Origin: a virus
DNA: 35,437 bases
Direction: 5' to 3' (one strand)
Virus record (IMG/VR): IMGVR_UViG_3300047478_000058
Location: 1 to 35,437 of that record
Below, piece by piece: positions 14,277 to 28,749 of this stretch (positions within the stretch are counted from its first letter, which is position 1; the number at the start of each line of letters is the position of its first letter). The notes below the pieces were generated by a model. The model did not search any database. It saw nothing but the letters and a program-made list of their open reading frames with translations, and was not told the origin of the DNA. Made by a program: the position numbers and the translations under genes.

Positions 14277-14491
14277 TTATTAATGTAAAAAAGGTAAAAG
14301 AGCTAGAGGATGGTAGTGCTATCTGTGAAATAGATTTAGATGGCGATGCTAAACGATGGTTGATTGAGCGAGGCTTTATCTCTTTAATGACGGACGCTTT
14401 AAAGAAAGACCCAGCCTGGTGGACTGAAGAGGATGAGAAACGCATGGACACAGTAGGTCAAAACGGCCCAACAGGAGAACACTATGAGTGA
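14273..14491 (+). CDS. Small acidic hypothetical protein (72 aa)
   Basis: A 72-residue acidic protein with GGGAGG about 10 bases before its ATG. Residues 1-30 look like beta strands (IINVKKVKELEDGSAICEID), the rest helical with a Trp-Trp pair near residue 49. It overlaps the DUF3310 gene by 8 bases. Function unknown. Confidence 0.68.
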   Translation: MIINVKKVKELEDGSAICEIDLDGDAKRWLIERGFISLMTDALKKDPAWWTEEDEKRMDTVGQNGPTGEHYE

Positions 14492-14753
14492 TGGTATGTC
14501 AGAACAAGCATGGGAAGAGTCTATGGAGCAAGTAGACGCTTTAATGAAGCAGGTAGGTGGCAATCACTACGCTAGTATGGCTATACAGCCAGTAGAGTTT
14601 ATAGTGGCTAATAACCTAACTTTTCTTGAGGGTAATGTAGTTAAGTATATATCCAGGCATCATGCTAAGAACGGTGCTGATGATGTTAGAAAAGCTATAC
14701 ACTATTGTGAATTAATCTTACGGACGGTATACCATGATTCAGACTATAACTGA
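14484..14753 (+). CDS. DUF3310 protein
   Basis: An 89-residue protein with the DUF3310 signature: GGNHYASMAIQPVEFI near residues 25-40, then GNVVKYISRHHAKNG and DVRKAIHYCELIL. This family is widespread in tailed phages, often near or fused to nucleotide-metabolism enzymes, but its reaction is not established. It is the last sizeable gene of the rightward operon. A GGAG lies 7 bases upstream of the ATG. Confidence 0.88.
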   Translation: MSDGMSEQAWEESMEQVDALMKQVGGNHYASMAIQPVEFIVANNLTFLEGNVVKYISRHHAKNGADDVRKAIHYCELILRTVYHDSDYN

Positions 14754-14942: not shown

Positions 14943-15014
14943 TTATTTATTCATAACATACATTGTTACTTCAAAGCCAAAACGCATTTCAGTAGCTGCT
15001 GGTTTAGTCCACAT
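14943..15014 (-). CDS. pqqA: PqqA: precursor peptide of pyrroloquinoline quinone
   Basis: A 23-residue peptide, the exact usual length of PqqA. It starts MWTKPA and carries the invariant core RFGFEVTMY: Glu15 and Tyr19 are the two residues joined by the radical-SAM enzyme PqqE (with chaperone PqqD) and then processed to PQQ. Against Klebsiella PqqA as I remember it, 12 of 23 positions are identical and most others conservative. AGGAGA lies 6 bases before the ATG, an ideal ribosome site. A TATAAG box (minus strand, 15058-15053) has only a poor -35, so read-through from late transcription is likelier. No pqqB-E genes are in the window, so host enzymes would be needed. Because each PQQ consumes one PqqA, supplying only this peptide makes biochemical sense. 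Confidence 0.9.
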
Positions 15015-15118
15015 GATAATTCTCCTGTTAGTTAGCTCTTAATTGAGCGTATCTTATAGTAACAGAATTGGGTTTTTTACACATCGGTAGGATTATTAAT
15101 GCAATCTAGTGAAAAACA

Positions 15119-15511
15119 CTATTTTAATGTTGGTGCTATTTTGTAATCCATTAACAATTTGGCTCTATCCATGATTTGCTGTAAGTCTTTAGCGTCAGAA
15201 CCAATGTAACGACCATACTTGTTGTTTGTTGCGTCCATGTTACCTTCAGCTTCAGGTTGTCCAGGCTCAATAAACTCATGGAAAGCGCCTAACACAGCAG
15301 GAACGGTATTGCCGTATTTCTTAGCAGCCATGCCAGACCAAACTAAATGCCTAAAAGCGTCAGCAGCACCATTATGCTCTGTGTCTTTGCCGTAGCGTTT
15401 AATTGCCTCTTGCTCTGCTAGTGATTTAGCATCAATCATGCCTGGAACTTCTTGCCCTGCAAAATTAGTTTCACTTAACAATGCTTTAGCTAGTTTTTTA
15501 CGGTCTGCCAT
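15119..15511 (-). CDS. DUF6973-like protein next to lysis genes
   Basis: A 130-residue protein with a pattern I associate with DUF6973: DAFRHLVWSG (His55), then AFHEF with His78-Glu79, and a PEAEGNMDATNN segment near residues 86-97. The conserved His, Glu and Asn residues suggest an enzyme active site, but no reaction is established. It begins 3 bases after the lysozyme stop and has no signal peptide. Located between the lysozyme and pqqA, it may act in lysis or be a late accessory gene. A short TAGTG/CACTA hairpin follows its stop. Confidence 0.65.
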   Translation of the reverse strand: MADRKKLAKALLSETNFAGQEVPGMIDAKSLAEQEAIKRYGKDTEHNGAADAFRHLVWSGMAAKKYGNTVPAVLGAFHEFIEPGQPEAEGNMDATNNKYGRYIGSDAKDLQQIMDRAKLLMDYKIAPTLK

Positions 15512-15514
15512 AAC

Positions 15515-16006
15515 TTATCCTCTAAATAATGCTGCTTCGTCTTTACGCCTATTGTCTAAACCTTTTAAGACCTTACCACCAGCCTTGTTATACTTGAGCA
15601 AGCTTTCCATAGCCGTGATTTTATCCCCACGCAAAAGCGCTTGACGGATGGTTGACCGCTGAAATGTGCCAAGACCAAGATTAAAGCAAAAGCTAAGAAT
15701 AGCATCGTATTCATTCTGTGAAAGTCGTATAGGTAAGTAACGGGCAAGCCCTCGTTCAAATCGTGCGACATCCTTAGCCAATAATGCGTCAACTTCTTCC
15801 TCACTCCATCTGCGATTGTCTTCAGGGTTTAATGGCCATGCTTTACGCCTAACCATTCCCTCAACACTAGATGGTATCTTTGCTTGTTCATGGTACATTA
15901 CACTGCCAACACCAATAGTCCACAACCTAGCAGGGCATTGATACGGCTTGTATCTAACACCCTCATGGTGCTTAAGCATTTTAAACAGTTCTTTACTTGC
16001 CTTCAC
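15515..16006 (-). CDS. Endolysin, glycoside hydrolase family 24 lysozyme
   Basis: A 163-residue T4/P22-type lysozyme that cleaves peptidoglycan glycan strands. I chose the GTG at 16006, giving the usual opening before HHEG; a TTG at 16045 and an ATG at 15979 are alternatives, the latter cutting too close to the catalytic Glu. The catalytic pattern is Glu15, eight residues, Cys24, five residues, Thr30, so the usual Asp is Cys, a known active variant. The chain continues with LWTIGVG, then FCFNLGLGTF and a NRRKDEAALF end typical of the family. There is no signal or SAR sequence, so it needs a holin to reach the wall. It overlaps the holin gene by 14 bases. Confidence 0.93.
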   Translation of the reverse strand: MKASKELFKMLKHHEGVRYKPYQCPARLWTIGVGSVMYHEQAKIPSSVEGMVRRKAWPLNPEDNRRWSEEEVDALLAKDVARFERGLARYLPIRLSQNEYDAILSFCFNLGLGTFQRSTIRQALLRGDKITAMESLLKYNKAGGKVLKGLDNRRKDEAALFRG

Positions 16007-16490
16007 GGTGTTTTTCCCATTGACGAGAACCAAAGTAGAAGCCAATTATACTAGACACTATAGCCATTTCGTCATCAGAGAATACTAAGTTCATGGCAGT
16101 AGTAAATTCTACGCCAGTATAAATAGCCCAAGCAAGACCAGCAACATCAACAAGCACTAGCAAACCAACAAATGTAAACGCAATGTATGGTCGTACTCTA
16201 GCGTTTAAATCAACCGTTGATTGCGATGCCTTATCCATGATTTTCATGTCATGTGCATATAAAGCCTCACGCTCTTGTGCATAAGTCTGCACTTCAATCT
16301 CATCTAACTTAATAGCCTCAATCTTTTCTTGTGACGCAAAGCCAGCAGCAGCCATAGCAGCTTCACGCTCTGTTTGCAAACGAGCCATAGCCATCTCATG
16401 CTTTTGGTCTCCCTTTTGTTGGAAGAAACCTAATATACTTGGTAACGCTGATGAGCCTATGCCTAATAAGCCTGAAATAATAGATAACAT
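15993..16490 (-). CDS. Holin of the GTA/3TM type
   Basis: A 165-residue membrane protein matching the 3TM holin family known from gene transfer agents. An N-terminal hydrophobic stretch (residues 1-24) is followed by a charged helical region (30-92), then ARVRPYIAFTFVGLLVLVDV and further membrane segments (about 98-122 and 140-155), closing with GFYFGSRQWEK, the family signature. Holins pierce the inner membrane to release endolysin; the lysozyme gene follows directly with overlap. Confidence 0.85.
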   Translation of the reverse strand: MLSIISGLLGIGSSALPSILGFFQQKGDQKHEMAMARLQTEREAAMAAAGFASQEKIEAIKLDEIEVQTYAQEREALYAHDMKIMDKASQSTVDLNARVRPYIAFTFVGLLVLVDVAGLAWAIYTGVEFTTAMNLVFSDDEMAIVSSIIGFYFGSRQWEKHREGK

Positions 16491-27831: not shown

Positions 27832-28749
27832 TTAAGCTCCGTAGTTAGCGTCTGGTATGTTTTCCCAACCAATTAAAACATTGGCTGTTCTTGGTGCTAG
27901 TGATAGTGTAGCAGAGCCAGCATCGTTAGCTTTAGCGATGTTAAGTTGCATATCGTAATCACGCTGATAAGATGATGTGTCAAAACCTTTTACTTCAAAG
28001 TATTTCTTTTTAAGCGCCAACACCATCAAACGGTTAGGGAATATGCAAGTGTCAGTATCTTGTATAAATTGAGTTTGGCCTGTGCCTGATGATGATTGCG
28101 CCCAGTTGCCTGAGATGTACTCAAAGCTTAAGTATTCGTTAGTAGATGTAAGTGGCCATATTTGAAACTTTTGACCCATAATACGCCAACGGATACGAGG
28201 GCCAGTTGAGATGTAGCTAGACTTCAACCATTGCCATTGTTGAGGTGTTTCAGGGCCTAACATCTCCCAGCGTTTAGACTTGTCGTATTGTGTGCGGTCA
28301 GTGATACGGTCAAACCCTGCTGGCAAGTCATACATAACTTGACCAAATACATAGTTGCCATTGCCGTCACTTGTTGCAGCACTATTGATTGTAACGGTAG
28401 TGCCTAATGCAGACACGACTTGTGTGCTTTGGATAACGCCTTCACCTTGCACTTGGAAGTTTTCTGCACCAGCAGCATTGATAAACGCTACAGTAGCAGG
28501 GTCTACGCCTGTGATAACGCTAGTGCCATAAAGAATAGCACCGTCTGATTCAGAGTATTGTGAATACCAATCGTACTCGGTATTCATCGCTTCCCATGGG
28601 TACTCTCTCGCAAGTTCGTTACCTGCCGCATTGATAAGATAGTACATTTGCGTAACATCAGTTGAGGTGTTGCCAGCTACCGTATTAGGGATAGCCAAGC
28701 CCATCTCGGCTGATGCTTGTTGCACTAATTGCAAGAGAGTTGTTGCCAT
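27832..28749 (-). CDS. Head-tail adaptor / tail tubular protein A-like
   Basis: A 305-residue protein opening with TLLQLVQQASAEMGLAIP, then YYLINAAGNELAREYPWEAM, the pattern of adaptor proteins (P22 gp4, T7 gp11) that ring the portal base. The middle is beta-rich (about residues 85-200), and the C-terminus has a helical RLMVLALKKKYFEVKGFD segment. It lies directly before the hub gene, as expected. Confidence 0.85.
   Translation of the reverse strand: MATTLLQLVQQASAEMGLAIPNTVAGNTSTDVTQMYYLINAAGNELAREYPWEAMNTEYDWYSQYSESDGAILYGTSVITGVDPATVAFINAAGAENFQVQGEGVIQSTQVVSALGTTVTINSAATSDGNGNYVFGQVMYDLPAGFDRITDRTQYDKSKRWEMLGPETPQQWQWLKSSYISTGPRIRWRIMGQKFQIWPLTSTNEYLSFEYISGNWAQSSSGTGQTQFIQDTDTCIFPNRLMVLALKKKYFEVKGFDTSSYQRDYDMQLNIAKANDAGSATLSLAPRTANVLIGWENIPDANYGA

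What the first reader, a model, noticed from the sequence alone, without database searches (positions are those of the whole stretch)
14943..15014. Phage-encoded PqqA: a precursor peptide for the cofactor PQQ
The sequence shows a 23-codon gene with AGGAGA 6 bases before ATG, at the end of the leftward gene set just after the lysis genes. It keeps the length and key residues of PqqA (MWTKPA start, Arg11, Gly13, Glu15-Val-Thr, Tyr19, Asn22). Known biology: PqqE, with PqqD, joins Glu to Tyr in PqqA, and further steps with PqqB and PqqC give PQQ; each PQQ uses up one PqqA. Inference: the phage supplies only the consumable precursor and uses host PqqB-E, raising PQQ for dehydrogenases such as methanol dehydrogenase during infection. 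It could also act as a decoy that ties up PqqE. Easily missed because it is under any normal ORF length cutoff. I cannot tell whether phage pqqA has been described before.
Basis: partly seen in the sequence, partly recalled or inferred. Interest (0 to 1): 0.93.

Follow-up and report, generated by a model that had tools for sequence, protein, structure and literature searches.

The report
Phage gene for PQQ precursor peptide
This virus of methanol-eating bacteria carries a 23-amino-acid gene identical in product to its hosts' PqqA, the raw material that cells use up to make the cofactor PQQ; many unrelated viruses of the same bacteria keep it too, almost always unannotated, so it is probably a widespread way of keeping methanol-based energy supply running during infection.

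Summary
Window 14943-15014 (-) encodes [23 protein letters not shown], a PqqA by Pfam (42.4 bits, cut-off 21.1) and NCBIfam (40.4, cut-off 20), identical to the commonest PqqA of Methylophilaceae, whose genomes carry 1-12 copies each. The same gene lies, mostly unannotated, in nine Methylophilales phage isolate records (Venkman, P19250A, MEP301, MEP401, MEP402, four Melnitz) and in at least 118 IMG/VR contigs of about 20 gene-content groups. In 124 phage copies dN/dS is about 0.04 and Glu15 and Tyr19 never vary. PqqB-E were not found nearby, nor PqqE or a PQQ methanol/ethanol dehydrogenase in 50 whole records. Phage copies form their own small transcription unit: a long upstream gap, often a -10 box, and a hairpin just upstream of the ribosome site. 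Best explanation: a precursor-only auxiliary metabolic gene that tops up a consumable substrate for host PqqB-E. A decoy is disfavoured. The effect on PQQ or phage yield is untested. Phage pqqA is not new in itself (one Lake Baikal T4-like contig, PMC7678222, which wrongly says P19250A lacks it); its breadth, the precursor-only pattern, the selection and the leader structure appear to be.

The parts
14943..15014 (-). pqqA: 23-aa PQQ precursor peptide [23 protein letters not shown]
   Evidence: Pfam PF08042 and NCBIfam TIGR02107 far above cut-offs; identical to the commonest Methylophilaceae peptide
15021..15026 (-). Shine-Dalgarno AGGAGA, 6 nt before ATG
   Evidence: sequence
15035..15048 (-). 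short hairpin GCTC-AATTAA-GAGC in the presumed 5' leader
   Evidence: hairpins in this position are a feature of phage pqqA genes
15053..15058 (-). -10-like hexamer TATAAG, 4 nt before the stem
   Evidence: single site is weak, no good -35, not picked up by the generic scan
15015..15118 (-). 104-nt upstream gap that holds the presumed promoter and leader
15119..15511 (-). upstream neighbour, DUF6973 protein (context)
   Evidence: Pfam PF22322 1.8e-15
15515..16045 (-). lysozyme/endolysin (context; end of the lysis cassette)
   Evidence: Pfam PF00959 3.9e-34, phrog_7
15993..16490 (-). holin, three transmembrane type (context)
   Evidence: Pfam PF11351 2.8e-6
14484..14753 (+). DUF3310 protein, convergent neighbour downstream (context)
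   Evidence: Pfam PF11753 6.3e-10; same neighbour in relatives

Best explanation
The gene makes authentic PqqA. During infection of a Methylophilaceae (methylotroph) cell it is transcribed from its own small unit, probably as a short mRNA that begins with a protective hairpin. Host PqqD/PqqE cross-link Glu15 to Tyr19 of the peptide and host PqqB and PqqC finish PQQ. Each PQQ consumes one PqqA, and hosts meet this demand with many pqqA copies, so a phage that shuts down or degrades the host genome would lose the consumable first while the enzymes persist. The phage copy keeps PQQ and thus PQQ-dependent methanol dehydrogenase supplied until lysis, much as cyanophage psbA replaces a short-lived photosystem protein. 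Shown here: identity, host match, breadth, purifying selection, absence of the other pathway genes, own gap and hairpin. Inferred: host assignment of the window, promoter use, modification by host PqqE, higher PQQ and benefit to the phage.
For: Profile matches. Exact identity with the commonest host peptide, 95 of 164 host copies; 142 of 142 Methylophilaceae genomes carry PqqA, 1-12 copies; multi-copy pqqA with single pqqBCDE is published for this family (PMC4109929). Nine Methylophilales phage isolate records carry it, and apart from one spring virus (MW202481) and mislabelled Acinetobacter chromosome no other of 50,697 phage records does. At least 118 IMG/VR contigs, about 20 gene-sharing groups with the isolates. 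Pooled dN/dS 0.04, 0.01-0.06 within groups; 77 identical peptides written in 63 different DNA sequences; E9, R11-T17 and Y19 invariant in 124 copies (E15-V16-T17 were fixed by the search pattern). No E15 or Y19 substitution in IMG/VR scans that look for such variants, and independently found copies keep both. No pqqB-E nearby, no true PqqE and no PQQ alcohol dehydrogenase in 50 records. Same place after the lysis cassette in relatives. Presence follows MCP kinship: 7 of 12 records of 25 kb or more with MCP at least 85% alike, 0 of 12 with MCP under 82%. Upstream gap median 141 nt, upstream gene on the other strand in 39 of 112; hairpin score median 14 against 10 in other phage genes.
Against: No expression, PQQ or infection data. 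Window host is inferred. Some close relatives lack the gene (5 of 12 records, though possibly fragments), so it is not essential. Low dN/dS among phages may partly reflect repeated capture from hosts under selection, although phage-specific codons argue for long residence. Promoter match in the window is weak. Position 4 (Lys to Thr/Ser) varies in phages, which could alter processing.
Confidence: 0.72

Rival explanations
1. Decoy: the peptide occupies PqqD/PqqE and lowers host PQQ, to starve competitors or change redox state.
For: A phage over-producing PqqA could saturate PqqE; phages carry no downstream enzymes.
Against: A decoy should lose or blur the cross-linking residues; none of 124 phage copies lacks Glu15 or Tyr19 (Glu15 was part of the first pattern, but scans for variants found none). 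The peptide is a plain copy of the host's, and hosts themselves raise pqqA copy number.
Confidence: 0.05
2. Neutral or selfish passenger: pieces of the many host pqqA loci are captured often and carried without function.
For: Hosts have many small, stand-alone pqqA units, easy to capture; patchy presence.
Against: Within phage groups synonymous change is near saturation while the peptide hardly changes (dN/dS 0.01-0.06); AGA at codon 11 in 33 of 98 phage sequences and in none of 32 low-GC host sequences; same locus kept in relatives.
Confidence: 0.08
3. The conserved segment is an attachment or recombination site shared with host pqqA, not a gene.
For: Two enterobacterial prophage-like contigs have pqqA near a contig end (L063, L076).
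Against: Phage and host copies differ at about 5 of 69 bases, nearly all synonymous, and share no flanks; no integrase was found among the window genes tested; start, Shine-Dalgarno and stop are always kept.
Confidence: 0.02
4. The peptide is real PqqA but its main benefit lies elsewhere, for example in another PQQ dehydrogenase, PQQ as antioxidant, or a different radical-SAM product.
For: A 202-kb virus has PqqA followed after about 80 nt by a radical-SAM gene that is not PqqE.
Against: Restricted, as far as seen, to phages of methylotrophs, whose dominant PQQ use is methanol dehydrogenase (PMC4109929).
Confidence: 0.13

Closest known systems
PqqA family (PF08042, TIGR02107), Methylophilaceae solo pqqA copies
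   Same: Identical peptide, length, Glu15-x3-Tyr19, stand-alone single-gene unit
   Different: Lies in phage genomes; codon choices differ from hosts (AGA11, TAT19); stronger leader hairpin; no pqqBCDE in the genome
PqqA of Lake Baikal viral population VP_266 (PMC7678222)
   Same: Phage-encoded PqqA, Methylophilaceae host
   Different: T4-like virus that also encodes methanol dehydrogenase; the 50 whole records tested here carry neither that enzyme nor PqqE. That paper states P19250A lacks such genes, but pqqA is at KX815270 28085-28153
Virus-encoded pqqA/pqqD/pqqE in reservoir sediments (PMC13188868)
   Same: Listed as viral auxiliary genes
   Different: Read as phosphate solubilisation genes; no analysis of precursor-only carriage
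Cyanophage psbA (from general knowledge)
   Same: Phage supplies the fast-consumed part of a host energy system
   Different: psbA is a protein subunit; PqqA is a peptide substrate that is destroyed to make a cofactor

Membership tests
PqqA | Match to the family profile above the curated cut-off | tested here: met
   42.4 vs 21.1 bits; 40.4 vs 20 bits, equivalog model
PqqA | Glu and Tyr separated by three residues (cross-link sites) | tested here: met
   E15-V-T-M-Y19 in the window; invariant in 124 phage copies
PqqA | Short peptide, about 22-29 aa, translated from its own start | tested here: met
   23 aa with Shine-Dalgarno
PqqA | Genetic link to pqqBCDE (usual, not required) | tested here: not met
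   None in phages; most Methylophilaceae copies are solo too (PMC4109929), so this is not a defining feature in the strict sense
PqqA | Cross-linked by PqqE with PqqD and converted to PQQ | not testable with these tools
   Needs biochemistry
Phage auxiliary metabolic gene | Host-type metabolic gene inside a genuine phage genome | tested here: met
   Window has portal, terminase, capsid, tail and lysis genes; nine phage isolate records carry the gene
Phage auxiliary metabolic gene | Kept by selection in phages | tested here: met
   dN/dS 0.01-0.06 within phage groups, same locus in relatives
Phage auxiliary metabolic gene | Changes host metabolism during infection | not testable with these tools
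   No expression or metabolite data

The most novel reading that the evidence does not exclude
Phages of an entire bacterial family have convergently acquired or long kept only the consumable precursor peptide of a redox cofactor, each as a dedicated hairpin-led mini-gene, because substrate supply rather than enzyme is what limits cofactor synthesis in infected methylotrophs. This would be a class of auxiliary gene, 'consumable substrate supply', hidden below gene-calling length limits.
Probability: 0.5. Interest if true: 0.85.

Novelty: new variant of a known kind. Interest (0 to 1): 0.74.

Why it matters
OM43 and Methylopumilus are among the most abundant methylotrophs of coasts and lakes, and every Methylophilales phage isolate found in this search carries this gene, yet the record annotations and the papers consulted here overlooked it. 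It gives a directly testable question in existing phage-host pairs: is PQQ precursor supply limiting during infection? It also shows that auxiliary metabolic genes under 30 codons are easily missed.

Tried and rejected
First IMG/VR pattern had the gap one base short; it serves as a chance control. Acinetobacter 'phage' hits are bacterial chromosome with a full pqq operon and were excluded. Contigs L063 and L076 carry an enterobacterial-type pqqA near the contig end (read directly in L063, beside host-like sequence) and were excluded. The search for related loci refuses a 23-aa query. The generic promoter and terminator scan found nothing convincing in the window. No Rfam family matched. No PDB chain matched by sequence. 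Codon contrast between phages and all hosts is confounded by host G+C, so it was repeated with low-GC hosts. No structure prediction was run: the peptide is 23 aa, below the tool's minimum.

Full report
WHAT IS THERE. On the minus strand at 15014-14943 lies ATGTGGACTAAACCAGCAGCTACTGAAATGCGTTTTGGCTTTGAAGTAACAATGTATGTTATGAATAAATAA, with AGGAGA six bases upstream. The 23-aa product matches Pfam PqqA over the whole model (42.4 bits, cut-off 21.1, E 6.4e-11) and the NCBIfam equivalog TIGR02107 (40.4 bits, cut-off 20). No PHROG family covers it. The window is a 35,437-base IMG/VR virus record with portal, terminase, capsid, tail, holin and lysozyme genes; pqqA is the last gene of the leftward unit after the lysis genes and faces rightward early genes (Sak annealing protein, DUF3310).

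HOST SIDE. The peptide is letter for letter the commonest PqqA of Methylophilaceae (95 of 164 copies read). All 142 Methylophilaceae genomes searched have it, in 1 to 12 copies, even at genome sizes listed as 1.1-1.3 Mb. The literature already notes 3-12 pqqA copies with usually a single pqqBCDE set (PMC4109929) and unequal expression of five copies in a methylotroph (PMC9851590). That fits a stoichiometric, consumable precursor. The Methylophilaceae host of the window is inferred from the peptide and from kinship to phage Venkman (Sak 63%, helicase 33%, terminase 31%).

OTHER PHAGES. tblastn of 50,697 phage records finds the peptide in Venkman, P19250A, MEP301, MEP401, MEP402, four Melnitz isolates and one spring virus; the two Acinetobacter hits are chromosomal contigs, the one read having a full pqq operon. 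In nearly all of these records the gene is unannotated, or a spurious gene is drawn over it on the other strand. The papers on MEP301, MEP401/402 and Melnitz do not mention a viral pqqA. With the isolates, contigs fall into about 20 gene-sharing groups (11-39 depending on threshold). Contigs are partial, so this number is approximate, and the pattern itself favours this peptide type.

SELECTION. In 124 phage copies (98 distinct DNA sequences) pS is 0.58 and pN 0.043, dN/dS about 0.04; within phage groups it is 0.01-0.06. Seventy-seven copies of one identical peptide use 63 different DNA sequences. E9, R11 to T17 and Y19 are invariant; the first pattern fixed E15-V16-T17 but not Y19. Three further scans for variants at codon 15 (first base not G, or second base not A) or codon 19 (first base not T) found none. 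Copies found through lysozyme or capsid kinship, without that pattern, also keep both residues while position 4 varies (Lys, Thr, Ser). Phage genes use AGA for Arg11 in 33 of 98 sequences, against 0 of 32 in low-GC hosts (p 3e-5), which suggests long residence in phages.

PRECURSOR ONLY. tblastn with PqqB, C, D and E finds none in the 120 viral loci, but finds one or more of them in 21 host loci (the 22 counted there include the Acinetobacter contig). Over 50 whole records, PqqE is absent apart from two weak radical-SAM matches far below the cut-off, and no PQQ methanol/ethanol dehydrogenase was found (TIGR03075). Copy number is one in 49 of 50; one relative outside that set has two different copies.

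PLACE AND EXPRESSION. In relatives that keep lysozyme, holin or DUF3310 the gene stays in the same place although the intervening genes differ. The gap upstream is long for a phage (median 141 nt) and the upstream gene is on the opposite strand in 39 of 112. An exact TATAAT lies 39-60 nt before the start in 16 of 84 non-redundant phage leaders (19%), against 4% of other phage genes and 8% of genes with intergenic upstream regions. A hairpin usually precedes the Shine-Dalgarno site (median score 14 against 10, Mann-Whitney p 1e-16 and 1e-11 against these controls); where a -10 box is seen, the stem starts a median of 7 nt after it, that is, near the expected transcript start. Hairpin sequences differ between phages. 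Shared ancestry inflates these p-values. In the window the parts are TATAAG 15058-15053 and GCTC-AATTAA-GAGC 15048-15035; alone they would be weak evidence. I read this as a dedicated short mRNA with a 5' stabilising stem; that is inference.

DISTRIBUTION AMONG RELATIVES. Records of 25 kb or more with capsid protein at least 85% like the window's carry pqqA in 7 of 12 cases; those under 82% in 0 of 12. Records sharing the lysozyme carry it in 18 of 48. The gene is therefore common but dispensable, and some absences may be missing sequence.

MECHANISM. PqqE with PqqD cross-links the Glu and Tyr of PqqA, and PqqB and PqqC complete PQQ (established knowledge). The most likely role is to keep PQQ synthesis, and so methanol oxidation, running to lysis. 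A decoy is unlikely because the reactive residues are never lost. A neutral passenger is unlikely given selection and locus conservation.

NOVELTY. One viral contig with PqqA plus methanol dehydrogenase was described from Lake Baikal (PMC7678222); that paper states that P19250A has none of these genes, but its record contains pqqA at 28085-28153. A 2026 paper lists viral pqqA, pqqD and pqqE as phosphorus genes (PMC13188868). The library holds only open-licence papers, so other reports may exist. New here, as far as found: the breadth across Methylophilales phages, the precursor-only pattern, the selection analysis and the leader structure.

Noticed in passing
L289:5797-6853 (G171, 202-kb virus): PqqA variant [23 protein letters not shown] with a terminator, followed after about 80 nt by a 298-aa radical-SAM protein that is not PqqE; possibly a different PqqA-modifying enzyme or chance neighbours.
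   Followed up: partly
L454 and L458 (one 36.5-kb record, G238): A close relative of the window's phage carries two different pqqA genes (MWITP... and MWTSP...) with different leader hairpins, near the two ends of the contig.
   Followed up: no
L063:11950-12320; L076: Two prophage-like contigs with an enterobacterial-type pqqA near the contig end; in L063 it lies beside host-like sequence, so a temperate phage may integrate next to host pqqA.
   Followed up: partly
window 15515-16045 relatives L290-L369: The lysozyme is 75-94% identical across at least 80 contigs whose other genes and pqqA status differ, so the lysis genes seem to move between phages.
   Followed up: partly
L476, L479 (streamlined Methylophilaceae, 1.2-1.3 Mb): Two pqqA genes in tandem about 200 nt apart, one with Gln at positions 4 and 6 (MWTQPQATEMRF...) and one standard, suggesting division of labour between host copies.
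   Followed up: no
L003:2067-2195 and L008:3961-4056: Public annotation draws a hypothetical gene on the opposite strand over pqqA in MW202481 and Melnitz.
   Followed up: yes
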